From NCBI GenBank assembly GCA_025464445.1, contig JAODLY010000016.1, positions 36,888-100,887 of the forward strand: DNA of 64,000 nucleotides. The letters are read 5' to 3'. The notes beneath the pieces are model-generated. The model was not told the origin of the DNA and ran no database searches. It saw only the letters and a program-made list of their open reading frames with translations. This stretch comes from Rhodoglobus sp. GTDB taxonomy: Bacteria > Actinomycetota > Actinomycetes > Actinomycetales > Microbacteriaceae. Made by a program: the position numbers and the translations under genes. Of the stretch, positions 18,511-44,520 are shown one piece after another; position 1 is the stretch's first letter, and each line of letters starts with the position of its first letter.

Positions 18511-19347
18511 ATGGGAGCGATCCGCGACTACGCGTGGGATCTTCCCTATGCCCGCGTCACATTCGAGGTAAGTTCTGCCAGCGACAAGGGGCTTGTTCGC
18601 CGAGTAAACGAGGACAGCCTTGTCGCAGTGCCACCCCTCTTCCTTGTGGCAGATGGCATGGGCGGTCATGCCTTCGGTGACCGTGCCAGCCAGGAGACCG
18701 CCCGGGTACTCGGCTCTCTGCTCCCCGGAGATGAGCCGGCCAGGGCAAGCGCCATCCTCGATGCGGTAGCAGAGGCCAACCGCGCGGTGAAAGCAATCTC
18801 GGAGGATGAGTTTGCTGGGACGACTCTCGCGGGTGTGGCACTCGTCCAGGCCGACGCGGGTCAGGCGTGTCATTGGATGGCTTTCAACATCGGGGATTCG
18901 CGGATCTACAGCTGGGACGGTGTGGTTCTTCGACAGGTAAGCGTCGACCATTCCGCCGTTCAGGAGCTTGTCGACGAGGGAGTCATCACTGCGGCGGAAG
19001 CTGCTGTGCATCCAGATCGGAACGTCATCACGAGAGCAATCGGAATCGACGGCGAGCTCGAGCCCGACGTCTGGCTCCTGCCCGCGGGAGGCACCCAGAC
19101 GTTTGTTATTTGTTCGGATGGGCTCACCAAGGAGCTTGACGATCGAGCGATCGAGGCGGTGCTCTCGTCGGTGGCAGCGGACTTGTCGCCGGCGGATCGG
19201 CTTGTCGCTGCCGCCCTCGCATCCGGAGGCGCCGACAACGTCACGGTGGTAGTCGTCGAATCGACAGTCTCACTCTCCGGCTCGGCCGAAGGATCTTCGG
19301 CGGACAAGCTACCCGCGCATCTTGAAGAAACACTTCCTCGACCCTAG
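18511..19347 (+). CDS. PP2C-family Ser/Thr protein phosphatase
   Basis: This 278-residue phosphatase contains all the metal-binding PP2C motifs: VNEDSLVAVPP, VADGMGGHAFGDRAS, NIGDSRIYSWDG, ICSDGLT and GGADNVTVVVVE. It should remove phosphate from Ser/Thr sites in the cytoplasm. The ATG at 18511 follows AGGGAG. An in-frame start at 18406 would add about 35 unconserved residues. It opens a run of same-strand genes that includes a matching Ser/Thr kinase (20588) and six FHA-domain proteins, so it most likely reverses that kinase's action. Confidence 0.93.
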   Translation: MGAIRDYAWDLPYARVTFEVSSASDKGLVRRVNEDSLVAVPPLFLVADGMGGHAFGDRASQETARVLGSLLPGDEPARASAILDAVAEANRAVKAISEDEFAGTTLAGVALVQADAGQACHWMAFNIGDSRIYSWDGVVLRQVSVDHSAVQELVDEGVITAAEAAVHPDRNVITRAIGIDGELEPDVWLLPAGGTQTFVICSDGLTKELDDRAIEAVLSSVAADLSPADRLVAAALASGGADNVTVVVVESTVSLSGSAEGSSADKLPAHLEETLPRP

Positions 19348-19355
19348 GAGCTACC

Positions 19356-20591
19356 CTGTCTGAAATCTCCTACGCCCCAGCGCCCGACGGCTGGGTGGTG
19401 CTGTGTCACGTCTCAACGGTGCTTGCGATCGACCTTCCGAAGGGGTCCGATCGGGTCGATGCGCTCTGGAAGCTGGTGCGCTCCGAAGCAGCGCCTGGCG
19501 TCCTTCTCGATGAAGTTATCCGATCCGGGTTGTCTTCCGCCCCGAATTTCGTGTTGGTCGGCGGGGGTGCGGGGTCACAGACCAGGGTGTTGGTGAGGGG
19601 TAGCGCGCTGCTGCGCGTCTCTAGCCCGACCGGTGAGCGCGAGATTAGTGGCGAAGGGGTGTCGAGTTGGATCGAACAGGTACTCGACGGGATCAGCGGC
19701 TATGAACTTCAGCTGAAGTCGATGCCGGCAGCAACGACCTTCCTTCCCCTCGAGAGTGGTGTGGTCAGGGCCGTGGCTCTCCGAGCGGGCAGCTATTCAA
19801 CCTCCGCTTCAGTTGGCCCGGCAATACAGGCGCCCGCGAAGCCAGCTGCCGCGCCCAAAGCCCAGCCCGTTGACATCTCGAAAAAGATGCCGGTCTCCGA
19901 TCTCGAGGCCACGCTGGCCGGACAGACTACGACGATCTCGGCCGAATCGCTGGCCGAACCCGTCGCGCCGAGTCCAGCAGTGGGGGCTTCCGATAGCTCG
20001 GGCTACGACCACCTTTTCGGCGAGACGGTAGTCCGGAAGGTCGAGGATGCGGCTGTGCGCGAATCCGACTCGATTGAGTCGGGCATGCTCGTCGGACCAC
20101 CCCCGCCCGCATCCGGTTCACCCGCTCCTGCCCCCCAGGACCTCGAGGGCGATCACGACGGTCACACGGTGATGGTGTCGGATATCGCGGCGCTGCGGGC
20201 CAGGCGGAAAGCGGCCCGCGCGGCGGCTCCCGCTCCGGAACCTCCGGTACCCACGCTGTACCTCGAGTTGTCGACCGGCGGTCGGGAGCAACTCGATCAG
20301 CCGCTTATCATCGGCCGGGCACCCAGTGCCTCCCGAGTGCCGGGCGGCAGGGTGCCTCGGCTGGTGAGCATGAACACGCCCAACCAGGACATCTCCCGCA
20401 CTCACGCCCAGATCACTGCGGAAGGAGGGACGGTGGTCGTCACCGACCTGCATTCCAGCAACGGGACGATGGTGACTCTTCCGGGGAAGCCAGCCCAGAA
20501 ACTCCGCCCGGGTGAGCCATCCGCTGTCATCGTCGGCACCATCATCGACCTCGGTGACGGGGCTACGCTCACCGTCTGCGAGTCGGTATGA
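19356..20591 (+). CDS. FHA-domain protein, first FHA of the secretion-like locus
   Basis: The N-terminal about 130 residues (from VVLCHVSTVLAIDLPKG) form an unrecognised domain. A long Ala/Pro-rich linker follows, then a C-terminal FHA domain with LIIGRAPSAS, DISRTHAQI and TDLHSSNGTM, the phosphothreonine-binding Arg, Ser-x-x-His and Asn positions. I place the start at CTG 19356 because TAGGAG at 19345-19350 is ideally spaced. The first standard start (GTG 19395) has no ribosome binding site. It overlaps the kinase gene by ATGA and is a likely substrate or scaffold for it. Confidence 0.82.
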   Translation: MSEISYAPAPDGWVVLCHVSTVLAIDLPKGSDRVDALWKLVRSEAAPGVLLDEVIRSGLSSAPNFVLVGGGAGSQTRVLVRGSALLRVSSPTGEREISGEGVSSWIEQVLDGISGYELQLKSMPAATTFLPLESGVVRAVALRAGSYSTSASVGPAIQAPAKPAAAPKAQPVDISKKMPVSDLEATLAGQTTTISAESLAEPVAPSPAVGASDSSGYDHLFGETVVRKVEDAAVRESDSIESGMLVGPPPPASGSPAPAPQDLEGDHDGHTVMVSDIAALRARRKAARAAAPAPEPPVPTLYLELSTGGREQLDQPLIIGRAPSASRVPGGRVPRLVSMNTPNQDISRTHAQITAEGGTVVVTDLHSSNGTMVTLPGKPAQKLRPGEPSAVIVGTIIDLGDGATLTVCESV

Positions 20592-22201
20592 ACAGGCGCA
20601 CGAGCGACCCTCCACAGCTGAAGGGATTCACGTTCTCCCAGGTGCTTGGCTCTGGTGGATTCTCCGACGTGTTCCTCTACGACCAGCAGCTTCCCAAGCG
20701 GCGGGTGGCAGTAAAGGTCCTCCTGAGTGACGGTCTGACCGCTGCCAGCCAGGAGGCGTTCATCACCGAAGCGAACGTGATGGCGCAGCTTTCGCATCCC
20801 TACATCGTCAAGATCTACCACGCTGACGTATCGGATGATGGCCGACCGTACCTCATCATGGAGTACTGCTCGGGTCAGAACCTCGCCGACCAGTACAAGC
20901 GACAGCCGCTGAGCGTGGTTGAAGCACTGCGTACGGGCATCCGGCTGTCCAGCGCGATAGCGACGGCGCACGCAGCAGGCATCCTGCATCGGGATATCAA
21001 GCCTGCAAATGTGCTGACGAACGACTACGGCTGGCCGGCACTCACTGACTTCGGCATCTCCTCGGCGTTGGAGGAGGACCTTCCGAGCCTGACCACGACC
21101 CGAGCCGCGTTGGCCGAGTCCGGCTCTACTACCGGGAGCGAGTCCGTGGGAATGTCGATCCCCTGGTCGCCGCCCGAAATGTTTGAGGACGATCCAAAAC
21201 CCGACGTTCGCTCGGACGTGTTCTCGCTTGCCGCAACCATCTACACGCTTCTCGCCGGCCGAACACCGTTCGAAGTCGGCGGCCGCTCGAACCAGTCCCT
21301 CGACCTCATCAGTCGAATTGAGCGCGGGGCCATCACCCCGATGGAACGCCAGGATGTCCCATCCTCGCTGCTCGCGGTGCTTCGGAAGGGGATGGCGACC
21401 AACCGCGAACAGCGCTTCGCGACCGCAGTCGACTTTGCCAGGGCACTGCAGCGTGTGGAACTCGAGCTGTCATACTCACCAACACCGATCGATGTTCCGA
21501 ACCTCGTGGTTCCACAGCCCGAGGCGCGCATCGACGACAATCACGCCGACGCGACGAGGGCGAGGTCGGTCACCTCCATCGCGGCGCAGGCACCCCAGGT
21601 GATCAGCGCGCCGTCGCAGAACGTGGCGCCGCCCGCGGCATCCGGAACTGCCTCTACCCTCGTCGCAGAAGCGACGGTCATTCGCGGCAAACCGTCGGCA
21701 CCAGCCGAGGCAACCCTACTGAGGGCAAAGCCCGCCGTCGCGGATACGGAGTCCGTGCAGCCCGCCAGGCGACGTCGTGGGCTGGCCGTCGGTGTGGTGG
21801 TCGGAGTCGTACTCCTTGTCGTGGCGGGGATCGTTGCGGCGTCCACCCTGGTGAGGCCGACCGGCAAAGCAGCAGAAACAACCACTTCTGAGGTGGCGAC
21901 CGACCCAAATGCGTCGGGCCCTGTCGTCTCCGACGTCATCCCGACTCCAACCCTGGTGTCGGCCGCCGAAGGCGCCGATGGAAGTTCCGTGGTGTTCACC
22001 TGGTCGAACCCGGACGGGGTCCCGAGCGACACATACGTCTGGCAACGCACCGACGGTGCAGGAGATCCGGAGAAGGTCCCAACCGACCAGTCGACGACTC
22101 AGATCGCCGGAGTCTCGCCTGGCACGAAGGTCTGCATCAGTGTTTATGTGCGCCGGGATGGCCAACTCTCCGCCGATCCGCTCGCAGCCTGCTTCCCATG
22201 A
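20588..22201 (+). CDS. Transmembrane Ser/Thr protein kinase with extracellular fibronectin III-like domain
   Basis: This 537-residue PknB-type kinase has a glycine loop LGSGGFSDVFL, catalytic Lys43 (VAVKVL), HRDIKPANV with catalytic Asp136, and DFG Asp154. The activation segment is rich in Thr/Ser. After the kinase domain (to about 275) comes an Ala/Pro/Thr-rich juxtamembrane region, one membrane helix (about 398-421) and an extracytoplasmic FN3-like domain (about 440-537) with WSNPDGVPSDTYVWQR. PASTA repeats are absent. It overlaps its neighbours on both sides. The FN3 domain could contact the giant Ig/FN3 protein encoded downstream; this is inference. Confidence 0.93.
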   Translation: MNRRTSDPPQLKGFTFSQVLGSGGFSDVFLYDQQLPKRRVAVKVLLSDGLTAASQEAFITEANVMAQLSHPYIVKIYHADVSDDGRPYLIMEYCSGQNLADQYKRQPLSVVEALRTGIRLSSAIATAHAAGILHRDIKPANVLTNDYGWPALTDFGISSALEEDLPSLTTTRAALAESGSTTGSESVGMSIPWSPPEMFEDDPKPDVRSDVFSLAATIYTLLAGRTPFEVGGRSNQSLDLISRIERGAITPMERQDVPSSLLAVLRKGMATNREQRFATAVDFARALQRVELELSYSPTPIDVPNLVVPQPEARIDDNHADATRARSVTSIAAQAPQVISAPSQNVAPPAASGTASTLVAEATVIRGKPSAPAEATLLRAKPAVADTESVQPARRRRGLAVGVVVGVVLLVVAGIVAASTLVRPTGKAAETTTSEVATDPNASGPVVSDVIPTPTLVSAAEGADGSSVVFTWSNPDGVPSDTYVWQRTDGAGDPEKVPTDQSTTQIAGVSPGTKVCISVYVRRDGQLSADPLAACFP

Positions 22202-22893
22202 AACCGCTGCGTTTGGAGTTCTGCGGTGAGTGGTACGACATCACCGAGCCGGAGGGTTTCTCGATCGGCCGCGAGTCCGACCTCGTGATCGATGACAACC
22301 CCTACCTTCATCGTCGGTTCCTGCAGATCTATCCGGACTTCGGAATGTGGTGGCTCGGCAATGTGGGTAACCTTCTCTCCGCAACGGTCACCGACGCGAC
22401 GGGGCACGTGCAGGCCTGGCTGTCGCCGGGAGCGCGGCTTCCCATCGTCTTCGAACAACTGCATGTGCTGTTCAGCGCCGGAGCCACGACGTACGACCTC
22501 ACGATCTACTCTGACGACGACTTCTACAGCTCATCTTCGGCGCTCGCTGGAATCACGGGCGCGACAACCATTGACCCGATTCCCCTCACGTCCAGCCAGC
22601 GACTTCTCATTGTCGCGCTGTCCGAAGACGTCCTGCGTCAGCGGGTGCCGGGGCGAGGGGAGATTCCGACATCGAACCAGGCCGCCGCGCGCCTCGGGTG
22701 GAACCTCACCACATTCAACCGCAAACTCGATAACGTCTGCGACAAGCTCGACAAGACGGGGGTCGCGGGGCTACGCGGGGGGCGAGGAAACCTGGCGACA
22801 AACCGCCGCGCGCGCCTCGTGGAATATGCGGTGTCTACTCGGCTGGTTAGCGTTGACGACCTCGCACTCTTGGATGGGCCAGAGCCGAGCTAG
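22198..22893 (+). CDS. FHA domain fused to a helix-turn-helix DNA-binding domain
   Basis: This 231-residue protein has an N-terminal FHA-like domain. It has FSIGRESDLVIDDNPYLHRR and a less typical second half, WWLGNVGN in place of the usual SxNG. A C-terminal segment (about 135-205) reads LTSSQRLLIVALSEDVL, then a predicted helix-turn-helix around IPTSNQAAARLGWNLTTFNR. It looks like a transcription factor steered by a phosphothreonine signal from the adjacent kinase, whose stop it overlaps. The AT-rich palindrome 130 bases downstream is a candidate target. Function is inferred from domain order only. Confidence 0.75.
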   Translation: MKPLRLEFCGEWYDITEPEGFSIGRESDLVIDDNPYLHRRFLQIYPDFGMWWLGNVGNLLSATVTDATGHVQAWLSPGARLPIVFEQLHVLFSAGATTYDLTIYSDDDFYSSSSALAGITGATTIDPIPLTSSQRLLIVALSEDVLRQRVPGRGEIPTSNQAAARLGWNLTTFNRKLDNVCDKLDKTGVAGLRGGRGNLATNRRARLVEYAVSTRLVSVDDLALLDGPEPS

Positions 22894-23107
22894 ATACATG
22901 GGGAGTGCTCCCCATCGCATTCCTGAGGTGACCTCGACAAGATAGCAACACCGTAGATGGCATTGCGGCTAGAAGCGCCCCCCTTTTTTGGGGGTCCGCT
23001 GAAGAGCAATAAGTCGCCGGCGATATTTGTGGGAAATATCCAACTGCTAAGTTCATGCCGAACCCGTCAGCCCAGAGGCGTGGTTCAGAGTTGTAGGAAG
23101 AGGAACG
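22894..23107 (+). promoter_or_regulatory. Regulatory gap before giant Ig-like gene, with hairpin and AT-rich palindrome
   Basis: These 214 bases break the otherwise overlapping gene run. Six C, six T and five G (22978-22994) can form a hairpin resembling a terminator for the upstream four genes. GATATTT (23022-23028) and AAATATC (23034-23040) form a perfect 7-bp inverted repeat 5 bases apart, conspicuously AT-rich here. It is a candidate operator and lies about 70 bases before the GTG of the next gene. Confidence 0.6.
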
Positions 23108-26100
23108 GTGACGCTGCTGGCCTGGCTTCGCGGTCGCAAGAGGACCGCGTCGGCAACTGCACTCGCAGTCCTTATCGCTGCGCCCGTGACCGTTGCGGTA
23201 CTCCATCAGGGTTTCCCAATTTCCGACGTGAACCTCGCCTCCAGAGATGTCTGGGTCACCAACGGCCATGACAATCTGACCGGTCGACTCAATATGCAGA
23301 TCGGCGAGCTGAACGCCAGCGCCTATCAGAAACTCGCCAGCAAGTCATTCGACGTGATGCAGGATGGCACCGATGTCTTCGTGTACAGCCAGGACCAGGG
23401 TCCCGACGGCAGCGGCTCGATAGAACGCGTGGACCCCGCCGATGTGACGCTGGGCCAGAAGATCACCGTTCCCCAGGGAGCCGCTGTGACCTTCGGCGGA
23501 AAAGTCATCACGATTGTGCGGCCGTCAGACGGTGCCCTTTGGGTTGTCCCTGCCACGGGGAAGCTCGAATTCGACACGAGCACGGCCAAGCCGCTGATGA
23601 AACTCGGGGCGAATGCGCAGGCGGTCGTCACGCTTGGCGGCGTTGTTTTCGCTGTTTCGGCGAAGAAGGGCGAGTTGTACCGCATCGAGGGTGTCGGAGC
23701 TGTCGCGGCTCACAAGGCCTCGGTCGCCGTGAAGGACTACACCCTCAGTGCGGTGGGGGACCGTGCCGTGATCCTCGACACGACAAACAACCAAATCATC
23801 AAGGATGACGGCGGCACTATCCCCCTGGATTCGAAGGCGCTGCGCATTCAGCAGGTCGGCCCCGACAAGGATTTCGTTGTGGTCGCTTCCGGAGACTCCC
23901 TTCTGAAGGTTTCCTTCAACGGTCAGGTCGTCTCGCTGCCCGCGAACATCACCTCCCCAGCGACTGATCCGGTTGAGGTCGCAGCACCCGTCGTGGTGGG
24001 GGACTGCATCCACGGGGCGTGGGCCGCTGCGAAGAGTCGCTACCTGGGCGCCTGCGACGGGAAGACTCCTTCGGAGCAGGACATCAATCAAGGGACAAAG
24101 GACTCGCGGCTGGAGTTCCGGGTCAACCGCGCTGTGGTCGCGCTCAACGATGTCGTAAGCGGAAACGTCTGGCTCGTGACCCAGAACATGACTCTGGTCA
24201 ACAACTGGAAAGAGGTCGCCCCACCCCGGCCGGATCAAGGCCAGGAAACCGACCAAACGGTGGTGAAGCAGACCTTCGAGGACACCTTGGCGCAGCGGAC
24301 GGAGGAGAACCACCCACCGGTCGCCAGGGACGACAATCTCGGCGTGCGTCCGGGCAAGTCGACGATCCTGTCGGTGCTCGACAATGACACAGATCCCGAC
24401 GGGGACGTGCTGACGATCTCCAGCACGACTGACACAACTGGTGCACTCCAAATCATCGACGGTGGCCAAGCCCTGCAGTTCACCTCGGACCCAGCAGCAT
24501 CAGGCACCGCGTCCTTCGGCTACACCGTTTCGGACGGTCGTCCGGGGGGAGTTGCCGAAGCCCAGGTCAACGTTGCCATCAGGCAGGCCACCGAAAACCT
24601 CGCTCCGACATCCGTGAGGCCGAGCGGTGTGGAGATCGAAGCCGGTCAGACCGTCACCTACAACGTGCTCACCGACTGGATCGACCCGGACGGCGATGTC
24701 CTCCAGGTAACTGCGGCCAGCCCGGCCACGGCTGACGTGGTCCGTTTCCGCCCCGATGGACAGATCACCTTCACGAACACGAGCACCGACCTCGGGCAGA
24801 AGGTCGTTAACGTCACGGTTTCCGACGGCACCCTTTCCACTGAGGGCCAGCTCATCGTTGACGTCAAGGCCACCGGTGAATTGAGCCCCGTCGGCACCCC
24901 CGACTTCGCATCGACCTTCGTTGGCAAGTCGGTCGCCGTGTCGGCGCTCGACAACGATCGTTCTCCTTCCGGAGCGCCCCTGACGATGGTTTCGGTCAAG
25001 GCGCTCACCGAGGGTGTCACCACCTCACTGGATCTTGACCACGGCGTCGTCACGGCGACCGCAGGAGCCGTCGGCGCGTACTACCTGGAATACACGCTCG
25101 CGGCCGGCGTGAAGACGAGCATCGGGGTCATCAGGGTGGATGTGCTCGAGGAGCCTGCCAAGCCACTCCCGCCGACCGCAGTGAAAGACACGGCCTACGT
25201 ACGCCCCAACGAGCCGACGACGCTTGCCGCTCTGGCTAACGACCAGTCACCGAGTGGCCGGGTCATCGGCATCCAGAGTGTCTCGCTCCCGCCCGAAGCT
25301 GAGCAGTTGTCCGTCGAGGTTCTCAACAGCGCTGTGCTGAGGATCACCGCACCGTCGGGTATGACCGCCGCAGTCACATTCACCTACACGATTTCCGACG
25401 GATTGAACTCCTCGACAGCGGGCGTCACGGTGGTGCCCGTTCCCGAGCTGACCAAGCACCAGGCACCGATCGCGAAGGATGACACGATCAAGGTTCGTGT
25501 CGGTGATATCGCCTCTGTTTCCGTGCTGGACAACGACTATCACCCTGACGGCGCCCGAATGCTGCTCGATCCCACGCTCGTGCAGACAAACGTGGGCGAC
25601 GACGGGCTTGCGTTCGTGACCGGCAACACGGTGCGAATCCAGGCACCCACTGTCCCGGGCCAATACTCGGTTACCTACCGCATCTACGATGCCTTCAATG
25701 AATCGGCGGTCGCGAACGTGGTGTTCACGGTGCTCGCCGACGATGCCGCCAACAACGCTGCACCTATGCCGCGACCACTCACGGCGCGCGTCTTTCAGGG
25801 CGGATCGGTGACAATCGAGGTACCCCTCAGCGGCATTGATCCTGACGGCGACTCGACAGTTTTGGTCAGCGCATCCGGGGCGGGCCACGGCGAGGTGATC
25901 GCTCAGTCGAGCACCGCGTTCACGTATCAGGCCTACAACGATGCGGCCGCGCTGGGGACGGACTCCTTCACCTACGAAGTGCGCGACTCCTTCGGCAAGA
26001 CGGCCACAGGGCAGATCCAGATCGGGGTGATCAAGCATCCCGCTACCGTCCCGTCGCCGACGGCGGTCAACGACGCCGTGAGCATTCGCCCCGGGCGTAC

Positions 26101-33301: not shown

Positions 33302-36300
33302 AGATCAAGCTGACACTGGTACGCCCCGGCAATGATGCCGTGGACCTGTCCATCACTGCCGAGCCCACAAGCTCGGTTGCGGACATCGCGCGTGAGCTGT
33401 ACAACGCCGACCCGAAGCGTACGGGCGCGCCGCATGCGAATTCCGAGGCATTGACGCTGCGCGCGCATCGCCCCGGGGACCTGAGCGGCAGTGCGGGGAC
33501 CCGGGCCATTGAGCCGACGGTTTCTCTTGCTGACTCGTCCCTGGCGAGTGGTGCCGTGGTCTCGCTGGCGCCGATTGCCGAACTGTCCAGGAACGCAAAG
33601 AATTCTGCCAGTGCAGCCGTCATAAAGGTGGAGTCCGGCGTTGATGCTGGCAAGCAATTTCCCCTGCCCCTGGGGTCGTCGACCCTCGGACGTGATTCGA
33701 GCAACCGGGTCGTACTCGCTGATCCGCTCGTATCGAAGGTGCACCTGAGGATCAACGTCACCGACTCGGCCGAGGTCATCGATTTGGGGTCAGCCAACGG
33801 CACTCTCGTTAACAGTGAGCAGGTAGACAGAGCGACGCTCGCACCAACTGACATCGTCACGCTCGGCGACACCACGCTTTCGATCGCGGTGACCGCGCAG
33901 GCCGCGGGCGATGAGGTGGCTGGCACGGTGTACTTGAACCGCTCGCCTCGCCTTGATCCACAGTATCCCGGGCGTAAGTTCAAGGCGCCGGAGGCTCCCG
34001 AGCGCCAGAAACCGCAGAAGCTCCCGTGGCTGGCGATGCTCGCGCCACTGGTCATGGGAGTCGTGCTTTACCTCCTGACTAAGAACCTGCTCTCCGTCGT
34101 CTTCGTGGCGTTGTCGCCTGTGCTGCTGCTGGGCACGTTCATCGACAACCGGATCCAGACTCGTCGCCAATGGAAGCAGGCGAAGAAGGACTTCGAGGCG
34201 ACAATCAGGTCGATCGAAACCGAGATCGTGGCAGAGCACGAGCTTGAACGAACGGGACGGTTGAACGAAGCGCCGTCGGTCCACGAGATTGTCGCAGACG
34301 GCAAGGGGCGTGGCCCACTGCTTTGGACGCGGCGCCCCGAGCACGACGCGTTCCTGCTGGCGCGACTGGGGCTCGGCCAGATGCCCAGCCGGGTCCAGAT
34401 CGAGACACCAGCCGAGCGCAGGGGCGTCGACGAGCACTGGCAGATGATCCAGTCCCTCGCGCTTCGCACAGCCCTCGTGGATGGCGTTCCGGTAAGCGAG
34501 AACCTCAGACGCAGCGGCAACCTCGGCGTCGCCGGGTCGCGCTCACTGGTGTCAGGGGTTGCCCGAAATATCGTGATCCAACTCGTCGGCCTTCATTCGC
34601 CGTCGGAGCTCGTGGTCGCAGCTGTCGCCTCGAAGTCCAGCGCGGAAACCTGGGACTGGCTCAAATGGCTGCCTCACGTCGGCTCTGCACACAGCCCTCT
34701 CGTCGCATCGCCACTGGCGATCGGCGGGCAAGGCACTGCTGCCCTGGTTTCTGAACTCGACGAATTGATCGAGAAACGAATCGCGCCGGCGCCCGGAGAC
34801 GCGACGGCCACGTTGCCTGTCATAATCCTGATCGTCGAGGACGACGCGCCGATCGAGCGCGCCCGGCTCGTCAAGCTCGCCGAACTCGGCCCGCAGGTGG
34901 GGGTGCACCTCATCTGGATCGCCCCATCGTTGGCCAGGTTACCCGCTGCCTGCCGGACCTTCCTCGAACTCACCCCGGCCTCCGGCGACGCCATCGCTGG
35001 GTTCGTTCATATCGGCTATGCAGTCCAGCCGGTGCAGTGCGATTCAGTCGACGCCGAGACCGCGCTCGCATTCGCGCGTAGTGTTGCTGCACTTGTCGAC
35101 GCCGGTGCGCGTACCGATGACTCGAGCGACTTGCCGCGCTCGGTTTCGTTGCTGCACCTCATCGGCACGGATGTCGGACAAGATTCCGAATCCGTGCTCG
35201 AGCGCTGGCAGGAGACGAATTCCGTGTTGACTGGGCCGAGGGCATCCCGATCCATCGGAAAGTCCCGCCCCAACCTGCGCGCGGTCTTTGGGCAGGGAAG
35301 CGCAGAGCCCTTCGCCCTGGATCTGCGAGCTGACGGCCCGCACGCGCTCGTCGGCGGAACGACGGGTTCAGGCAAGAGCGAGTTCCTGCAGGCATGGGTG
35401 CTCGGACTTGCAACCGCGCACTCACCGCAGCGCGTCTCCTTCCTGTTCGTGGACTACAAGGGAGGGTCGGCGTTCGCCGATTGCGTACAGCTGCCACACA
35501 CTGTCGGCCTCGTCACCGACCTGAGCCCGCACCTGGTTCGCCGCGCCCTCACCTCCCTCCGCGCCGAGCTGCAGTTCCGCGAACACCTCCTGAATCGCAA
35601 GGGCTACAAAGACCTGATCGAACTCGAGCGCAGCGGCGATCCCGAGGTGCCGCCAAGCCTGCTGATAATCGTGGATGAATTCGCCGCGCTGGTGAATGAG
35701 GTTCCCGAGTTTGTAGATGGCGTCGTGGATGTCGCGCAAAGGGGTCGCTCACTCGGACTCCACCTGGTGCTGGCCACCCAACGCCCCGCCGGGGTCATCC
35801 GCGACAATCTACGGGCAAATACCAACCTGAGGGTAGCTTTGCGAATGGCCGACGAGGATGACAGTTCCGATGTGCTCGGCACTCCGATGGCGGCAACCTT
35901 CGACCCCGCGATCCCGGGCCGAGCAGCCGCCAAGACGGGGCCGGGGCGGATCCGGTCATTCCAGTCGGGATACGCCGGCGGATGGACGAGCGATGTGCCC
36001 GAGCCCAGCGCGGTGCTCGTCGAGGAACTGAGCTTCGGCATCCCCGTGTCGTGGGATCCGCCCAAGGATTTCGCTGCAGAAGCCGCGAAGGAAGCAAAGG
36101 CACAGGGCCCAACCGACATCAAACGAATCGTTGCGACCGTGCGCAAGGCCGCCAAGGAAGCGGCGATCCCGGAACTCCGGAAGCCGTGGCTGCCGGTGCT
36201 CGCGTCGTCGTACGACTACTCCAAGCTTCCTACACGCCGTACGGACGACGAACTCGTCATTGGTGTCGTGGATGACGCACGGCGACAGTCCCAGCCGACC

Positions 36301-37734
36301 GTGTCGTACTTCCCGGACCGCGATGGCAACGTCGCGGTAATCGGAACGGGTGGATCGGGCAAGAGCACCGTGCTGCGCACCCTCGCAGTCGCGTCAGCCG
36401 TCACGGTACGCGGCGGTCCTGTGCACGTTTACGGGCTCGACTTCGCAGGCGGCGGGCTGCAGATGCTCGAGGCCCTCCCTCATGTCGGATCGATTATCAA
36501 CGGCGACGACGAAGAGCGTGTAGCGCGACTTCTGCGCTGGCTCCGCGACCTGGTGGATCAACGCGCGGTGAAGTACTCCGAAGCACGCGCCGGGAATATC
36601 GTCGAATACCGCAAGATCGCCAATGCTCCAGATGAGCCCCGCATCATGCTGCTGCTGGACGGCATGGGCGCGTTTCGCGAGGCGTACGAAGCCAGCGCGA
36701 GTTCCGCTTGGTTTTCAGTCTTCTCGCAGATCGCTACTGACGGTAGGCAGGTCGGCGTGCACGTTGTTGTCACGGGCGACCGTTCGGGAGCGATTCCCAC
36801 CTCGTTGTCCTCCTCGATCCAGCGCCGACTCGTGCTGCGTATGGCGAGCTCGGATGACTACGGGATGCTGAACGTCGCGGGGGACATCCTCAATCCGCTG
36901 TCGTCCCCCGGTCGTGGCATCCTGGACGAACTCGAGACGCAGATCGCCGTGCTCGGTGGGGACCCGAACGTCGCCGTCCAGGCGCGCGAGATCGAGAGGC
37001 TTGCCGCAGCGATGGTGAAGGCCGGGGTGACTTCTGCGCCCTCTATCGAGCGCCTCAGCGACTTCGTGCCGCTGTCCACGTTGCCCAGCACTGTTGATGG
37101 CCGCCCCACCATCGGCGTCGCCGACGACTCGCTCGCCCCGATCGCGACCGACACGACCGGTTCGTTCCTGATCGCCGGCCCTCCCGGTAGCGGTCGCACG
37201 ACTGCCCTTGCCACCATCGCCAGCGCGGTCGCCCACTCCAAACCCGAGCTGGAGCGCATACTCATCAGCCCACGCAAATCCTCCCTGTCGGGTCTGCCCC
37301 TGTGGGGGAGTTTTGCTGACGACCCCGACGCCGTGCGCGCGCTTGTCGACAAGCTGCTGAAGCAGGTTACGGCGGCGAAGGCCAAGCCCGCGACCTTCGC
37401 ACTGTTCATCGAAAACCTGACGGACTTCGTGGACTCGGAGGTCGAATCAGAACTGGAGACCCTTATCAAGGGCGCGATCAAGCTCGACAACTTCGTGGTC
37501 GCCGAGTCGGAGACCTCCACCTGGAGCGCTGCCTACAGTTTCGGCAAGCCCATGAAGTCGGGGCGGCGCGGCATCATCCTCCAGCCCGACGACGGCGACG
37601 AGGACATGCTCAAGGCGTCGTTCGGTCGCATTCGTCGTGGAACGTATCCACCCGGGCGCGGCTTCTTGGTGTCCGGAGGGCGTTCTCGCAAACTCCAGCT
37701 TGCAACAACCGAAGAAGAGGTTGGCGACCAGTGA
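33298..37734 (+). CDS. FHA-fused FtsK/SpoIIIE ATPase, EssC/EccC-like type VII secretion motor
   Basis: This protein has 1478 residues. A ubiquitin-like or FHA-like stretch at 1-95 leads to an FHA domain (about 105-190) with LPLGSSTLGRDSSNR, VSKVHLRI and DLGSANGTLV. Two helices follow near 243-285, then three FtsK-type ATPase modules. Module 1 has GGTTGSGKSEF (Lys693) and IIVDEFAAL. Module 2 has GTGGSGKSTVL (Lys1022) but LLLDGMG in place of DE. Module 3 has GPPGSGRTTAL with Arg1300 where Lys is expected. FHA plus two helices plus three modules matches Firmicute EssC more than split EccCa/Cb. It is the expected motor for the WXG100 proteins just downstream. Confidence 0.93.
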   Translation: MKIKLTLVRPGNDAVDLSITAEPTSSVADIARELYNADPKRTGAPHANSEALTLRAHRPGDLSGSAGTRAIEPTVSLADSSLASGAVVSLAPIAELSRNAKNSASAAVIKVESGVDAGKQFPLPLGSSTLGRDSSNRVVLADPLVSKVHLRINVTDSAEVIDLGSANGTLVNSEQVDRATLAPTDIVTLGDTTLSIAVTAQAAGDEVAGTVYLNRSPRLDPQYPGRKFKAPEAPERQKPQKLPWLAMLAPLVMGVVLYLLTKNLLSVVFVALSPVLLLGTFIDNRIQTRRQWKQAKKDFEATIRSIETEIVAEHELERTGRLNEAPSVHEIVADGKGRGPLLWTRRPEHDAFLLARLGLGQMPSRVQIETPAERRGVDEHWQMIQSLALRTALVDGVPVSENLRRSGNLGVAGSRSLVSGVARNIVIQLVGLHSPSELVVAAVASKSSAETWDWLKWLPHVGSAHSPLVASPLAIGGQGTAALVSELDELIEKRIAPAPGDATATLPVIILIVEDDAPIERARLVKLAELGPQVGVHLIWIAPSLARLPAACRTFLELTPASGDAIAGFVHIGYAVQPVQCDSVDAETALAFARSVAALVDAGARTDDSSDLPRSVSLLHLIGTDVGQDSESVLERWQETNSVLTGPRASRSIGKSRPNLRAVFGQGSAEPFALDLRADGPHALVGGTTGSGKSEFLQAWVLGLATAHSPQRVSFLFVDYKGGSAFADCVQLPHTVGLVTDLSPHLVRRALTSLRAELQFREHLLNRKGYKDLIELERSGDPEVPPSLLIIVDEFAALVNEVPEFVDGVVDVAQRGRSLGLHLVLATQRPAGVIRDNLRANTNLRVALRMADEDDSSDVLGTPMAATFDPAIPGRAAAKTGPGRIRSFQSGYAGGWTSDVPEPSAVLVEELSFGIPVSWDPPKDFAAEAAKEAKAQGPTDIKRIVATVRKAAKEAAIPELRKPWLPVLASSYDYSKLPTRRTDDELVIGVVDDARRQSQPTVSYFPDRDGNVAVIGTGGSGKSTVLRTLAVASAVTVRGGPVHVYGLDFAGGGLQMLEALPHVGSIINGDDEERVARLLRWLRDLVDQRAVKYSEARAGNIVEYRKIANAPDEPRIMLLLDGMGAFREAYEASASSAWFSVFSQIATDGRQVGVHVVVTGDRSGAIPTSLSSSIQRRLVLRMASSDDYGMLNVAGDILNPLSSPGRGILDELETQIAVLGGDPNVAVQAREIERLAAAMVKAGVTSAPSIERLSDFVPLSTLPSTVDGRPTIGVADDSLAPIATDTTGSFLIAGPPGSGRTTALATIASAVAHSKPELERILISPRKSSLSGLPLWGSFADDPDAVRALVDKLLKQVTAAKAKPATFALFIENLTDFVDSEVESELETLIKGAIKLDNFVVAESETSTWSAAYSFGKPMKSGRRGIILQPDDGDEDMLKASFGRIRRGTYPPGRGFLVSGGRSRKLQLATTEEEVGDQ

Positions 37735-37830: not shown

Positions 37831-38106
37831 ATGGCTCGTTTGGGAATGGATGTCGACGCGGTCCGCGGAGTCTCCAAGCAGCTTCACACGCAGGCGGCAA
37901 GCATCGACGCGCTGATCGGCAAGATCCAGTCGATCGTTGGAGGCCTCCCGGGGGTCTGGGATGGGCCGGACGCGCAGCAGTTCGTCAATGACTGGTGGCC
38001 CGAGCACAAGAAGACACTCCAGGCCGCCAGCAGTCACATCGAGGGTCTCGCCAGGTCTGCAAGCGCCAATGCTGACGAGCAGGCGCGCGTTTCAGGCCGC
38101 TACTAG
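37831..38106 (+). CDS. WXG100-family protein (ESAT-6-like)
   Basis: This 91-residue helical hairpin has Trp-x-Gly in GVWDGPDAQQF at about 45-55. AAGGAG precedes the ATG. The sequence is closely similar to the N-terminus of the next protein (MARLGMDVD, FVNDWWPEHKKTL, AASSH), so the two probably form a heterodimer or are recent duplicates. The canonical C-terminal YxxxD/E export signal is not visible. WXG100 proteins are substrates and partners of EssC/EccC motors, one of which is encoded just upstream. Hairpins lie before and after the gene. Confidence 0.93.
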   Translation: MARLGMDVDAVRGVSKQLHTQAASIDALIGKIQSIVGGLPGVWDGPDAQQFVNDWWPEHKKTLQAASSHIEGLARSASANADEQARVSGRY

Positions 38107-38170: not shown

Positions 38171-38965
38171 ATGGCTCGTTTGGGCATGGATGTTGATCAG
38201 GTGGCTGCTGCCGGCAAGGCACTCAAAGAACGTGCGGCGGAGATCGATACTCTCGTCAGCAAGCTCGACGGGATCGTGCGCTCTATCCACGGCGTTTGGG
38301 AAGGCCCCGACTCTGACCAGTTCGTCAACGACTGGTGGCCTGAACATAAGAAGACCCTTGTCGCTGCCAGCTCGCACGTCGCGGGACTCGGGCAGTCTGC
38401 GCTGAACAACGCGTCTGAGCAGCGCGACGCGAGCGGGAATTCCGGGTCCGGTGGCGGCGGCGGTTCGGGCATTCCTCCGGGTGTTGGGACATCGACGCCA
38501 TTCCAGCAGGATCCAAGCGTTCAACAACTCGCGACAAACAAGAGCGCGGTAGATGAATGGGCCCTCGGGGCAAATGGACGGGGAATCGACGTAGATCACG
38601 CGTACGGCAATCAATGCGTTGACGTGATCAACGACTATGCCGAAAAACGCTTCCCAGGTGTGAGCCATGGCGTTTCGTTGGGCGGCGGAAATGCTTACCA
38701 GATCTTTGACAACACCAACTCGCCGTACTTTGACAAGATCCCTGCGAATGGGACCCCTCAACCCGGGGACATTGTCTGCATTGGTCAATTTCCGATAAAT
38801 GGCGTGCCTGGGAATGGCCATGTAGCTGTCGTTCAAAGTGTCGAGAACGGCGTGGTTCATGTCCTGGAGCAGAACGGACTTAACCCGACCGGCGTGACCC
38901 AGCCAGGGACGGTGAAGGCCTACGAGCTTCCTTATGTCCAGGGCTACCTGCGCCCTAAGGCTTGA
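38171..38965 (+). CDS. WXG100-CHAP fusion, probable secreted peptidoglycan hydrolase
   Basis: This 264-residue protein joins a WXG100 domain (1-90, GVWEGPDSDQF) through a Gly/Ser/Pro linker (about 92-115) to a CHAP amidase domain (about 130-264). The catalytic Cys149 lies in YGNQCVDVINDYAE and the His217 in GNGHVAVVQ; LEQNG supplies the usual third polar residue. CHAP domains cut peptidoglycan amide or peptide bonds. The WXG100 part should direct export through the adjacent EssC-like motor, so this is the best candidate effector of the locus. GAAGAGAGG precedes the ATG at 38171. Confidence 0.92.
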   Translation: MARLGMDVDQVAAAGKALKERAAEIDTLVSKLDGIVRSIHGVWEGPDSDQFVNDWWPEHKKTLVAASSHVAGLGQSALNNASEQRDASGNSGSGGGGGSGIPPGVGTSTPFQQDPSVQQLATNKSAVDEWALGANGRGIDVDHAYGNQCVDVINDYAEKRFPGVSHGVSLGGGNAYQIFDNTNSPYFDKIPANGTPQPGDIVCIGQFPINGVPGNGHVAVVQSVENGVVHVLEQNGLNPTGVTQPGTVKAYELPYVQGYLRPKA

Positions 38966-39168: not shown

Positions 39169-39169
39169 C

Positions 39170-40156: not shown

Positions 40157-40839
40157 AATCAGGCGGGAAGGCCCTCTTCATCGCGGGAATCGTCCCCGTC
40201 ATTGCCGTGATCATCTGGGGGCGGGCCGGCTTCTACGCAAGCTCCGTGCCTGTCATGCTGCTGCTCGCCGGCGGTGGTATCGCGTTGATGGTGGTCGGCG
40301 CCAGGATGAACAGGGGCTCGGAGCCCAACAAGGCCGTGGCATGGACTCCGTCCACCACGGAGCAGGTCGCGCCCTTGGCGCCCCTGCCGGTCATCCAGAC
40401 ATCGGAGGCGTTGTCTTCCCCGTTCGAAGCTGTGCACCCGGTGGCGAGCCAGCTTCCTGCTGAAGCCGTACCGCTGGTGCCGTGGGCTCTCGTGGGAGCG
40501 GATGGCAGCCGCTACCAGCTCGCTGCGAGAACGGTGATCGGCAGGAATCCCAATGGTGCAGACCTCGACGGCACTGAGCGCGTGATCGCCCTGGCCGATG
40601 CTGGCGCGAGCGTCTCGAAGGCCCACGCGCTGGTCACGGTTCAGGGGGAGGAGATACGTGTTCGAGACCTTGGCTCGACCAACGGCACATTTGTCGTTAA
40701 CCCCCAGGGCGTGGAGAGCGAATGCCAGCAATATCGGGACACGGTCATGGATGTCGGCAGCACCCTCGAACTCGGCGAATACTCCCTCTCACTCGTGGCA
40801 GGCACAGCGACCCTCGAAACAGGAAAGGGTGAGAGATGA
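40153..40839 (+). CDS. Membrane-anchored FHA-domain protein
   Basis: This 228-residue protein has two closely spaced helices at about 7-23 and 30-48, placing the rest on the cytoplasmic face. A Pro/Ala-rich linker and a C-terminal FHA domain (about 125-225) follow. The FHA domain has TVIGRNPNGADLDG, VSKAHALVTV and DLGSTNGTFV, all ligand-contacting positions intact. The GTG start overlaps the previous stop, and its own stop overlaps the next ATG. It would tether phosphothreonine partners to the membrane next to the kinase or motor. Confidence 0.87.
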   Translation: MKSGGKALFIAGIVPVIAVIIWGRAGFYASSVPVMLLLAGGGIALMVVGARMNRGSEPNKAVAWTPSTTEQVAPLAPLPVIQTSEALSSPFEAVHPVASQLPAEAVPLVPWALVGADGSRYQLAARTVIGRNPNGADLDGTERVIALADAGASVSKAHALVTVQGEEIRVRDLGSTNGTFVVNPQGVESECQQYRDTVMDVGSTLELGEYSLSLVAGTATLETGKGER

Positions 40840-41477
40840 CCTGCCCTACGTGCGGCAATCCGGTACGCCCCGGAGCGACCTTCTGCGGGGAGTGCGGCTC
40901 GCAGCTGCCCACTGCGGCGGCCGCTGTTATGCCACCGCCGCCCCCACCGCCACCGCCGCCTGCTCCGACCTCGGCTCCTGCTCCCGTCCTGCCGAGCGTC
41001 GAACCCCCGGCAAGAAACCCCTTCCTGATCGGCGTTCCGCCGTCTGTGACCCCCGCTCCCGCGGTCGCCACCGCGCCCGTCGCCGCCGCACCGTCGACCG
41101 ACACCGACATCGAGGCAACCAGGGTCTCGGCGCGCAGGAGTAGCCGCGCTGGCTGGACCCTCGAGCTGTCGGACGGACAACGACTACGGGTGACGACATC
41201 TGCTTTGGTTGGTCGTGGGCCCGCGGCCGACCCTCGCTGGCCCGGCGCGATCCTTGTCCAGGTCGTCGACTCCACCAAGACGGTGTCTAAGACACACGCC
41301 GTGTTCGAGGTGGTCGATGGCTCGCTTTGGGTGACCGATCTGAACTCGAGCAACGGGGTCTTCATCGAAGGTGCGGACGGCACTGAGCATGATGTGGACC
41401 CCGGAGTTCGCATTGTCGCCCCATCCGGGTCGTCTGTCCTGCTCGGCGATTTCCCCGTCAAGGTGGACAAGGGATGA
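40836..41477 (+). CDS. Zinc-ribbon, proline-rich linker, FHA-domain protein
   Basis: This 213-residue protein opens with a zinc ribbon (CPTCGNPVRPGATFCGECG). A linker with a run of ten or so prolines and an Ala/Pro stretch to about 85 follows, then an FHA domain (about 105-210). The FHA part has ALVGRGPAADP, VSKTHAVFEV and DLNSSNGVFI. There is no membrane helix. It is translationally coupled on both sides by ATGA overlaps. The ribbon is shared with the products at 38965, 41474 and 42065, suggesting a common docking element in this locus. Confidence 0.86.
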   Translation: MTCPTCGNPVRPGATFCGECGSQLPTAAAAVMPPPPPPPPPPAPTSAPAPVLPSVEPPARNPFLIGVPPSVTPAPAVATAPVAAAPSTDTDIEATRVSARRSSRAGWTLELSDGQRLRVTTSALVGRGPAADPRWPGAILVQVVDSTKTVSKTHAVFEVVDGSLWVTDLNSSNGVFIEGADGTEHDVDPGVRIVAPSGSSVLLGDFPVKVDKG

Positions 41478-42061: not shown

Positions 42062-42064
42062 AAG

Positions 42065-42493: not shown

Positions 42494-42517
42494 GAGCACG
42501 ACGGCAGGGAGCACGGA

Positions 42518-43429
42518 TTGACAACTGATGCGCAGGCGCGGAAGCGCGTCGACGACCCCGGCACGCCGGCGGCAGAACTAGCCGAGCTTGCGGCAGCACA
42601 TCCCGAGCTGTCTGCGGCGATCTACCGCCATCCGAACGCTTACGACGGGCTCAGGGAATGGATTGAGACCCACCATGCGGACCGGCTGAAAGTAGGAACG
42701 CCAGCCGTCTCGCAACCAGTACCGAGTTCGTCAGCGCCTGCTGGTGACGCTCGCCCGCAGGTCTCCTGGTGGGATCGCCCGCGGTCCTCGCTGCTGACCT
42801 CGGTCGGTATCGCAGTGTTGGCCCTGGTAGTCGTCGGGGTGATCATCGGCTCCACTATCGGCCGAATAGCATCGATTGACGCCGACCGGGCGGACGTAGT
42901 CTCGATGCCAATCGATTCTCCCGCAGCAGGATCCGACCCCACGCCAGTTCCCACCCCCGAGCCATCCGCGAGTGCGGCGGCGTCGCGAATTCCATCGACC
43001 TGCACCGCACTGTTCTCCGCGGCGATCACCGCAACCATCCAGGCCGCCGGGTATCGCCAGGGAACTTCCGCCCGCTTGAACGACCCCGCCGGAACCAGCG
43101 ATGGGACGCTTGCTGGGCTGATGGCGGGCGTGCCACGGCTGGAGTGCACATGGCATCCCTCGAACACCAATACGGCTGGACTCGAGACCTCGGTGCTCGA
43201 AATAGACCCAGCCACGCTCGCGGCTGTCGCGGCTCGGCTCCAGGCACTCGGGTACGCGTCCCTGGACGAACTCGGAGGAGTCAGGTATTTCTTCGAGAAG
43301 ACCGGTTCGGATGGAGTTGCCTACGGCGAGTCGGACATGCTTCGCGACGGCCTCTGGTTTGCCACTCGCTGGGTGCAGTACGGGCCGGATGGGTACACGG
43401 CAGACATGGTCTCCCGGGTGTTCGGGTGA
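42518..43429 (+). CDS. Variant leucine-rich-repeat membrane protein (first paralogue)
   Basis: This 303-residue protein starts at TTG 42518 after CAGGGA. Residues 5-50 resemble the actinobacterial variant LRR unit (VDDPGTPAAELAELAAAHPE, then a second unit ending in REWIE). A linker leads to one membrane helix (about 92-115). An extracytoplasmic domain (about 155-303) contains two Cys (CTALFSAAI, LECTWHPSN) that could form a disulfide. The function is unknown. The next gene overlaps it and has the same layout, so they may form a pair on the membrane. Confidence 0.75.
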   Translation: MTTDAQARKRVDDPGTPAAELAELAAAHPELSAAIYRHPNAYDGLREWIETHHADRLKVGTPAVSQPVPSSSAPAGDARPQVSWWDRPRSSLLTSVGIAVLALVVVGVIIGSTIGRIASIDADRADVVSMPIDSPAAGSDPTPVPTPEPSASAAASRIPSTCTALFSAAITATIQAAGYRQGTSARLNDPAGTSDGTLAGLMAGVPRLECTWHPSNTNTAGLETSVLEIDPATLAAVAARLQALGYASLDELGGVRYFFEKTGSDGVAYGESDMLRDGLWFATRWVQYGPDGYTADMVSRVFG

Positions 43430-44520
43430 GCGCGGACGCGAACGAGCGCGCAAGGGCCGCCAACCCGAAGACACCGCTTGCCGACCTGGCTGCCCTCGCT
43501 TACGAGCACCCCGAGTTGCGCGCCGTCGTTGCGGCCAACCCTTCCACCTACGACGACCTCCTCGCCTGGCTCCGCGATCTAGATGAGCCGGAGGTCGACA
43601 GGGCGCTCAGCGCGCGGTCCAGTGCCCCGGTCGCTGCCGCCGCGGCGGTCGCCGACTCCACAGAACTGTCTCGCGTCCCATCAACGCCGGTCGCGGCGAC
43701 GACGACCGAACCGATGCCGGTGGTGGTGGCCTGGAGGAAGATCCCGCGTCTTGTCAAACTCGTATCGGCATCCGGGATCGCGGTCGTGGTCATCGTGGCG
43801 ATCGTGGCGGGGTCTTTGACTGCCGCGGCACAGCAAAGGCTCGAGCAGGCCGTCACCGACCACGATGAACTGCAGGCCGAAGCGGATGCTGGTGCCGCGG
43901 CAGCAGCTGAACCCACGGTCGCCCCGGCTCCGGTCGCGAGCTCGGCCGCCTGGAATTTCGCAAACGCGGCGGGATATTCCTTCAGGGAGGACATCACGGT
44001 CGGCACGCCCGTGCGGTTCGATGCAGACAACCCTCCCCAGCACCAATTCACTAGCGACACCATCGCGGGAACCGCATGTTCTCTCGCTAACACTGATCTG
44101 GTGATCCCTATCAAGTGGCTTACCAGCGCGACGACGAAGACGTTCGATACGAGTATCGAAATGGATATGGTCGTGTCGCCCGCCCAGTCCACCGACTACA
44201 GCGTGATGGTGGAGCAGTTCTTCAGCGATGGGACCCAGTGCAAGGCCGACAACGACCTCTCGAGGGTCGCGGTGCGCTTCACCAACCCGCTCGGCCCCGG
44301 TGTCGGTGGTTGGCAACCACTTTTCGTTGTCATCAAGGACTACTTCAGCCCCAATCGCCCCGACGGTGACCCAGGTATCCTCAGCCAGATCACGCTGCGC
44401 CCGATCTCCTCGATGTACGACAACTCCCAGTCTGGCGACTGGGTGTTTCTCGACCAGGCGCTTATCGGGTCCGACAAGGAGTCGTTGGCTCTGACATTGG
44501 CGGGCGCCACCGTTCCCTAG
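43426..44520 (+). CDS. Variant leucine-rich-repeat membrane protein (second paralogue)
   Basis: This 364-residue protein starts at GTG overlapping the previous stop. The N-terminal variant LRR (NPKTPLADLAALAYEHPELR, residues 10-30, then a second unit ending LAWLRDL) matches the preceding protein. A Thr/Ala-rich linker, one helix (about 105-130), a short coiled region (QQRLEQAVTDHDELQAEADA) and an exported domain (about 170-364) follow. This domain carries two Cys and a beta-rich look (GWQPLFVVIKDYF). It is the last gene of the secretion-like locus and is not assignable to a known function. Confidence 0.75.
   Translation: MSADANERARAANPKTPLADLAALAYEHPELRAVVAANPSTYDDLLAWLRDLDEPEVDRALSARSSAPVAAAAAVADSTELSRVPSTPVAATTTEPMPVVVAWRKIPRLVKLVSASGIAVVVIVAIVAGSLTAAAQQRLEQAVTDHDELQAEADAGAAAAAEPTVAPAPVASSAAWNFANAAGYSFREDITVGTPVRFDADNPPQHQFTSDTIAGTACSLANTDLVIPIKWLTSATTKTFDTSIEMDMVVSPAQSTDYSVMVEQFFSDGTQCKADNDLSRVAVRFTNPLGPGVGGWQPLFVVIKDYFSPNRPDGDPGILSQITLRPISSMYDNSQSGDWVFLDQALIGSDKESLALTLAGATVP

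What the first reader, a model, noticed from the sequence alone, without database searches (positions are those of the whole stretch)
18511..44520. A kinase/phosphatase/FHA-controlled type VII secretion-like locus with its own MoxR-DUF58-TGase and Ig-repeat modules
About 26 kb of same-strand, mostly overlapping genes combine one transmembrane Ser/Thr kinase, one PP2C phosphatase and six FHA domains, one of them inside the FtsK/SpoIIIE motor. Two WXG100 proteins, one fused to a CHAP hydrolase, are also present. These sit with a giant Ig/FN3 protein, a MoxR-DUF58-TGase-like triad, zinc-ribbon proteins and variant-LRR membrane proteins. The classical ESX parts (EccB, EccD, EccE, mycosin) are missing. 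Established: EssC/EccC motors export WXG100 proteins, and FHA domains bind phosphothreonine. Inference: phosphorylation gates a cell-wall-hydrolase export machine built around the Ig protein and MoxR triad instead of the ESX membrane complex.
Basis: partly seen in the sequence, partly recalled or inferred. Interest (0 to 1): 0.93.

Follow-up and report, generated by a model that had tools for sequence, protein, structure and literature searches.

The report
Export motor joined to PFNA module
In many actinobacteria a protein-export motor of the type VII kind sits in one gene block with a kinase, phosphatase and giant surface-protein module that was described separately in gut bifidobacteria as "PFNA"; the block likely works as one phosphorylation-controlled export and cell-surface machine, and the module's so-called transglutaminase lacks its catalytic cysteine in every copy examined.

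Summary
The gene set is real, with corrections: Pfam supports five of the six FHA domains, and both WXG100 domains score below curated cut-offs. It is a widely conserved actinobacterial block: kinase, phosphatase and FHA genes, Ig protein, MoxR, DUF58, "transglutaminase" (TG), EssC-type motor, often WXG100 genes. The Ig-MoxR-DUF58-TG half is homologous, in the same order, to the Bifidobacterium PFNA cluster; the motor half resembles, but does not belong to, T7SSd. I found no paper joining the two. New: (1) the motor carries an N-terminal ubiquitin-like domain, a part reported missing from T7SSd; (2) the TG has no catalytic cysteine: 0 of 94 family members, 0 of 19 more, 0 of 120 listed B. gallicum-type homologues, against 19 of 20 control transglutaminases; (3) kinase linker, phosphatase tail and FHA1 share a threonine motif well above shuffles and above other kinases. 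No EccB or EccD match exists in the assembly (EccD control weak). The halves separate: 31 of 64 genomes with the TG subfamily lack a strong motor, and 28 of these have no motor beside the TG. So "one machine" is likely, not shown; kinase gating of export is an untested hypothesis.

The parts
18406..19347 (+). PP2C phosphatase; C-terminal tail carries the threonine motif EETLPR (residues 307-312, about 19324-19341)
   Evidence: PP2C_2 34.4 bits; catalytic motifs kept in the family; tail motif in 27 of 54 family members
19395..20591 (+). FHA protein (FHA1), C-terminal FHA, long linker
   Evidence: FHA 36.7 bits; linker motif in 20 of 77 family linkers; the window copy itself has only a near-match, ETVVR at 210
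20588..22201 (+). Ser/Thr kinase, one TM helix (395-426), outside domain FN3-like by eye; threonine motifs EATVIR (361) and EATLLR (374) in the linker
   Evidence: Pkinase 129.9 bits; TM by hydropathy; HRD Asp in 65 of 67 and DFG Asp in 66 of 67; motif in 40 of 65 linkers
22198..22893 (+). Well-conserved accessory protein of the signalling cassette; FHA-like N-terminus by eye, possible HTH at the C-terminus (unproven)
   Evidence: 41-59% identity to 13 relatives; no significant Pfam or PDB sequence match
23108..28399 (+). Giant surface protein: N-terminal TM helix, about 350-residue domain of unknown fold, cadherin/Ig-type repeats; homologue of PFNA FN3
   Evidence: Big_9 233 bits, 7 stretches; 30% identity over 1589 aa to the B. 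gallicum PFNA protein
28414..29382 (+). MoxR AAA+ ATPase
   Evidence: AAA_3 206.6 bits; Walker motifs invariant in 54 sequences; 56% identity to the PFNA ATPase
29379..30722 (+). DUF58 membrane protein
   Evidence: DUF58 51.2 bits; PFNA homologue 33%
30719..33301 (+). Membrane pseudo-transglutaminase (TgpA-like; the Cys position is Asp509; site about 32237-32254)
   Evidence: Transglut_core 71.5 bits; no Cys in 94 family members or 19 more; 19 of 20 controls keep Cys
33298..37734 (+). EssC-type export motor: ubiquitin-like domain (residues 1-92), FHA (103-200), TM, three FtsK-type ATPase modules
   Evidence: FtsK_SpoIIIE 210 bits; EssC model 548 bits; fold of UBL and FHA
37831..38106 (+). WXG100 protein, 91 aa
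   Evidence: TIGR03930 E 7e-7, below cut-off
38171..38965 (+). WXG100 domain fused to a CHAP hydrolase
   Evidence: CHAP 45.3 bits, WXG100 23.4 bits
39170..40156 (+). FHA protein (FHA4)
   Evidence: FHA 29 bits
40153..40839 (+). FHA protein with two TM helices (FHA5)
   Evidence: FHA 37.1 bits; TM by hydropathy
40836..41477 (+). Zinc-ribbon FHA protein
   Evidence: FHA 33.2 and Zn_Ribbon_1 29.5 bits
41474..42061 (+). DUF4190 membrane protein, zinc-ribbon-like N-terminus by eye
   Evidence: DUF4190 40.5 bits
42065..42493 (+). DUF4190 membrane protein
   Evidence: DUF4190 59.7 bits
42518..43429 (+). LRV_2 membrane protein
   Evidence: LRV_2 57.3 bits
43426..44520 (+). LRV_2 membrane protein (start read by me from the frame)
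   Evidence: LRV_2 77.9 bits

Best explanation
The locus is a type VII-like export motor in one gene block with the PFNA signalling and surface module, and it likely works as a single kinase-controlled machine that would export WXG100-tagged wall enzymes through or beside a giant Ig-repeat surface protein. Shown here: the block is conserved; the motor carries a predicted ubiquitin-like domain and a phosphothreonine-type FHA domain; kinase, phosphatase and MoxR motifs are intact; the transglutaminase cysteine is not there. Inferred steps: the kinase senses the envelope outside the cell and phosphorylates the [DE]xT[VIL]xR motifs on itself, on FHA1 and on the phosphatase; the motor's FHA would dock on such a site, which would hold kinase and motor together and switch export on; PP2C would reset it. 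MoxR would remodel the DUF58 / pseudo-transglutaminase / Ig assembly, in which the transglutaminase-like domain would bind rather than cut or cross-link. The motor would export the 91-residue WXG100 protein with the WXG100-CHAP enzyme, which would trim peptidoglycan.
Confidence: 0.55

Rival explanations
1. Two neighbours, not one machine: the kinase-Ig-MoxR-DUF58-TG module is a stand-alone surface and adhesion system (as proposed for bifidobacteria), and the motor with its WXG100 proteins shares only its promoter and regulation.
For: Module without strong motor in 31 of 64 genomes, 28 of them with no motor in the stretch read around the TG; five genomes of the genus that holds B. gallicum have the module, no motor in those stretches, and best motor scores of E 1e-54 to 1e-62, taken as ordinary FtsK; strong motor without TG nearby in 17 of 41; gaps of 214 and 204 bases could split the transcript.
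Against: Four-base overlap of TG and motor genes here; TG directly before the motor in loci where the cassette is upstream; two placements of the cassette keep the same set; the motor's FHA is of the phosphothreonine type and a kinase is in the cassette.
Confidence: 0.3
2. An antibacterial delivery system: the WXG100 fusions are toxins fired at neighbouring cells and the Ig protein recognises the target.
For: WXG100-type fusions vary between genomes: CHAP here, alpha/beta-hydrolase or lipase in L034, L069, L081, PGAP1-like in L086; T7SSd loci are reported to carry Rhs and LXG-like candidates (PMC11217815, passages).
Against: The block is widely conserved; no immunity gene beside the CHAP gene was noticed, but none was searched for; only 10 fusions were scanned and 4 of 10 gave no Pfam match.
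Confidence: 0.1
3. An ordinary ESX (T7SSa) whose other membrane parts lie elsewhere in the genome.
For: The motor also matches EccCa (365 bits); the assembly has 57 contigs; EccE and EccD controls were weak.
Against: No EccB in the assembly (99.6% complete) although 6 of 40 family genomes have it; no EccD match; the motor scores higher as EssC (548 bits) and carries FHA.
Confidence: 0.03

Closest known systems
PFNA operon of Bifidobacterium (pkb2, fn3, aaa-atp, duf58, tgm, prpC, fha)
   Same: Same five core genes in the same order, homologous proteins, plus phosphatase and FHA genes; the transglutaminase lacks its cysteine in both.
   Different: Here an EssC-type motor and WXG100 genes follow directly; in the Bifidobacterium-type stretches read no motor was found beside it. 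One PFNA review has no occurrence of FtsK, WXG or secretion in its main text, and no held paper has both PFNA and type VII secretion.
T7SSd (TsdA, TsdC, TsdD, TsdH, TsdI; Garrett et al. 2024, PMC11217815; abstract, sections on identification, T7SSd/e and discussion read, passages elsewhere)
   Same: WXG100, FHA-bearing EssC-type motor, TM Ser/Thr kinase, large Ig-rich surface protein, no ESX membrane set.
   Different: The large protein is not detectably related to the candidate TsdI of T7SSd-like loci (E 2.7 and 1.5); MoxR, DUF58 and TG present; a ubiquitin-like domain is fused to the motor, whereas T7SSd is reported to have no ubiquitin-like protein.
T7SSb EssC/EssB/EsaB (Bacillota)
   Same: EssC-type motor with N-terminal FHA; ubiquitin-like partner; EssB is a pseudokinase membrane protein (PMC11217815).
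   Different: Here the kinase keeps its active site, the ubiquitin-like part is fused to the motor, and Pfam finds one FHA on it.
TgpA of Pseudomonas aeruginosa (PDB 6g49; name and organism recalled, the call says protein-glutamine gamma-glutamyltransferase)
   Same: Closest solved structure to the transglutaminase domain by sequence (E 8e-11); its gene is recalled to sit with MoxR and DUF58 genes.
   Different: Catalytic Cys absent in the family studied here.
Mycobacterial moxR1-DUF58 operon next to ripAB
   Same: MoxR plus DUF58 linked to wall-hydrolase export; likeness to PFNA already noted in print (PMC12067865, passages).
   Different: That export is reported to be through Tat; no EssC-type motor is mentioned in the passages seen.

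Membership tests
Type VII secretion system (broad) | EccC/EssC motor | tested here: met
   FtsK_SpoIIIE 210 bits, TIGR03928 548 bits though below the 778 equivalog cut-off
Type VII secretion system (broad) | WXG100 protein encoded with the motor | tested here: met
   Two, by E-value and W-x-G motif, below curated cut-offs
Type VII secretion system (broad) | Export of WXG100 proteins by the motor | not testable with these tools
   Needs experiment
T7SSa / ESX | EccB | tested here: not met
   None in G000; 6 of 40 family genomes have it
T7SSa / ESX | EccD | tested here: inconclusive
   No match in G000; control genomes rang in 2 of 14, none over cut-off
T7SSa / ESX | EccE | tested here: inconclusive
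   No hit, but the control was silent
T7SSa / ESX | Mycosin protease | not tested
   No search run
T7SSb | Separate EsaB/YukD protein | tested here: not met
   PF08817 in G000: nothing over cut-off, best E 0.05; control over cut-off in 1 of 14 genomes
T7SSb | EsaA, EssA, EssB | not tested
   No search run
T7SSd | TsdC with phosphothreonine-type FHA | tested here: met
   Residues and fold; 29% identity over about 1337 aa to T7SSd-like motors L130, L132
T7SSd | TM kinase TsdD | tested here: met
   TM kinase with intact motifs in the block
T7SSd | Large Ig protein TsdI | tested here: not met
   Window Ig profile against the large proteins of L130/L132: E 2.7 and 1.5; those loci were assigned to T7SSd by me from gene order
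T7SSd | Small one-TM protein TsdH | not tested
   No profile search; no such gene noticed in 18406-44520
PFNA cluster | Core order kinase, FN3/Ig, MoxR, DUF58, TG | tested here: met
   Same order, one extra gene between kinase and Ig
PFNA cluster | Homology of each core protein | tested here: met
   Ig, MoxR, DUF58 and TG against B. gallicum locus L171; the kinase was not in the fetched L171 stretch, a related stretch (L258) has a kinase of this profile at 471 bits before the Ig gene
Active transglutaminase | Catalytic Cys | tested here: not met
   Asp in the window; 0 of 94 family members, window included, have Cys; 0 of 19 more
MoxR-vWA-beta-propeller ternary systems | bpMoxR domain | tested here: met
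   36.6 bits, cut-off 27, but plain AAA_3 scores far higher
MoxR-vWA-beta-propeller ternary systems | beta-propeller partner | tested here: inconclusive
   N-terminal part of the Ig protein: no PDB sequence match; structure not predicted

The most novel reading that the evidence does not exclude
A distinct actinobacterial type VII secretion class whose envelope complex is PFNA: a ubiquitin-FHA-tagged EssC motor docks, through kinase-made phosphothreonines, on a MoxR-driven DUF58 / pseudo-transglutaminase / Ig-mast assembly. The PFNA operon of human gut Bifidobacterium, now read as an immune sensor, would then be the envelope half of this secretion machine left without its motor.
Probability: 0.4. 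Interest if true: 0.85.

Novelty: new variant of a known kind. Interest (0 to 1): 0.72.

Why it matters
It joins two literatures that no paper found here connects: type VII secretion variants (T7SSd) and the Bifidobacterium PFNA operon. It offers an answer to a puzzle stated in print, why an actinobacterial variant seems to lack the ubiquitin-like part: in this relative it is fused to the motor. [quoted passage not shown] And it names exact threonines on kinase and phosphatase, which makes phosphorylation control of a type VII motor directly testable in harmless laboratory actinobacteria.
Full report
What is there. The window lies in an unnamed 2.84 Mb genome of 57 contigs, 99.6% complete; the nearest motor relatives that bear names are mostly Microbacteriaceae, so I take it as that family (inference). 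From 18406 to 44520 all genes run on the + strand: PP2C, FHA1, TM kinase, a conserved 231-residue protein, Ig giant, MoxR, DUF58, transglutaminase-like protein (TG), EssC-type motor, WXG100, WXG100-CHAP, three FHA proteins, two DUF4190 membrane proteins and two LRV_2 membrane proteins. The next gene reads as leuC (my reading). A response regulator and histidine kinase precede; a profile made from the window histidine kinase matched no other of the 80 fetched loci.

Is it a unit? Profiles built from the window genes were run over these loci. Of the 80, 63 have at least 9 kb upstream; among these TG is present in 55, DUF58 in 51, FHA1 in 41, the 231-residue protein in 40, kinase in 39, PP2C in 37; 17 loci with less upstream sequence were not counted. 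For 19 further genomes of the same order, picked by me for family spread among strong motor hits, up to 20 kb was read, motor and upstream: Ig and TG both appear in 13 of 19, MoxR with TG in one more, Ig with MoxR and DUF58 in another; three have none of these and one contig ends. Two arrangements recur: cassette - Ig - MoxR - DUF58 - TG - motor, as here, and Ig - MoxR - DUF58 - TG - cassette - motor. The cassette is usually PP2C - FHA1 - kinase - 231-residue protein in both. The own genome holds a second copy on another contig, PP2C - kinase - Ig - MoxR - DUF58 - TG - FHA - motor of 930 residues; it lacks the 231-residue protein, the UBL and FHA parts of the motor, and a recognised WXG100 gene.

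But it is separable. In 149 genomes of the order, 41 have a strong motor match, 64 have this TG subfamily, 33 have both, and 24 have motor and TG within 9 kb; 31 have the TG without a strong motor. The thresholds, 985 and about 140 bits, were set by me and the places copied by hand; three of the 24 near pairs have weaker TG scores of 85-100 bits. For the 31, stretches of up to 20 kb around the TG were read: a weaker motor-profile match lies there in 3 (G060, G077, G138), none in 28.

The link to PFNA. Genomes of one family carry Ig - MoxR - DUF58 - TG - PP2C - hypothetical - FHA, the last gene turned round in three of four (L171-L174), close to the order published for PFNA (PMC6803598 introduction; PMC8430577 passages). 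One of them holds a TG identical to a Bifidobacterium gallicum protein, and every one of the 120 listed hits that bears a species or genus name is Bifidobacterium. Window against this locus: Ig 30% over 1589 residues, MoxR 56%, DUF58 33%, TG 30%, PP2C 40% over 123. In two genomes of another genus of that family a T7SSd-like set (kinase, 147-residue protein, about 1798-residue protein, motor) lies about 32 kb from PFNA. So PFNA and the window module are the same kind of thing, and in many other actinobacteria it sits beside a type VII motor. No paper in the held library has both "PFNA" and "type VII secretion"; the 2024 T7SS survey has no mention of MoxR or DUF58 in its main text, and a 2025 review likens PFNA to the mycobacterial moxR operon; the passages seen do not link it to a type VII motor.

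The transglutaminase has lost its cysteine. The nearest solved structure by sequence is 6g49, a glutamyltransferase I recall as TgpA. At the position of the catalytic cysteine, 94 family members (window included, longer than 600 residues) read D 69, E 11, S 7, G 3, Q 2, A 2, and never C; 19 more read A 8, D 6, S 4, G 1. Twenty weaker-scoring transglutaminases, taken by me from genomes of the same order, served as control: 19 of 20 have Cys and His; the exception (Q) may itself be a family member. All 120 listed homologues of the B. gallicum protein, itself included, have Ser, and none keeps the His or the Asp. Of the 94, 56 keep His and 50 keep Asp; the window has Lys and Asp. [quoted passage not shown] The likely reading is a binding domain.

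Phosphorylation. Kinase, PP2C and MoxR keep their catalytic motifs. In stretches that otherwise hardly align, the pattern [DE]xT[VIML]xR stands in 40 of 65 kinase linkers (100 shuffles: mean 1.04, maximum 3), 27 of 54 PP2C tails (200 shuffles: 0.49, maximum 3) and 20 of 77 FHA1 linkers (100 shuffles: 2.08, maximum 5). Of 26 other kinases from the loci of a 15-genome family search 2 have it. Of 53 loci with all three genes, 12 show it in three, 18 in two, 17 in one, 6 in none. The pattern was found by eye first, and relatives are not independent, so these numbers overstate the evidence; the control kinases speak against a general kinase feature. A looser pattern spreads differently, to zinc-ribbon FHA proteins and DUF58 but not PP2C.

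Cargo. WXG100 genes were recognised downstream in 30 of 68 loci with at least 1.5 kb, with profiles made from the window's two, so divergent ones may be missed. Fusions differ: CHAP here; alpha/beta-hydrolase or lipase in L034, L069 and L081, PGAP1-like in L086; of 10 scanned, 4 gave no Pfam match.

Verdict. That all parts form one export machine is likely, not shown.

Noticed in passing
L097:11972-20000 and L150:1-11003 (own genome, contig C47): Second copy of the block: PP2C, kinase, Ig protein, MoxR, DUF58, TG (Ala at the Cys position), zinc-ribbon FHA, and a 930-residue motor without UBL and FHA; no WXG100 gene recognised beside it.
   Followed up: partly
window 15532-18376: A LuxR-type response regulator (216 aa), a histidine kinase (399 aa) and a membrane protein (333 aa) with 4-base overlaps, 29 bases before the PP2C gene; the kinase and membrane protein matched no other fetched locus.
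   Followed up: partly
L001 / L098 (own genome, contig C15): A clear stand-alone WXG100 gene (67.9 bits) beside what reads as a membrane histidine kinase, on a 5.3 kb contig without a motor.
   Followed up: no
L035: A record titled Sporosarcina beigongshangi (a Bacillota genus, recalled) carries a copy of the block like those of actinobacteria; possibly contamination or mislabelling.
   Followed up: no
L171, L172, L174: Bifidobacterium-type MoxR proteins have N-terminal extensions with repeated [DE]-x-T-[VI]-L-A motifs (3, 3 and 1 copies; 5 of 8 loci have none); Pkb2 is reported to phosphorylate this MoxR.
   Followed up: partly
L034, L069, L081, L086, L037, L041: WXG100-type N-termini fused to alpha/beta-hydrolase or lipase-like domains beside the motor in other actinobacteria (Pfam for the first four; by eye for the last two).
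   Followed up: partly
window 29379-30722 and relatives: The DUF58 protein's vWA-type metal motif (recalled) appears lost across 70 sequences; no control set was run.
   Followed up: partly
L063: A Propionibacteriaceae copy of the block carries four LRV_2-type genes near the motor, like the two at the 3' end of the window.
   Followed up: no
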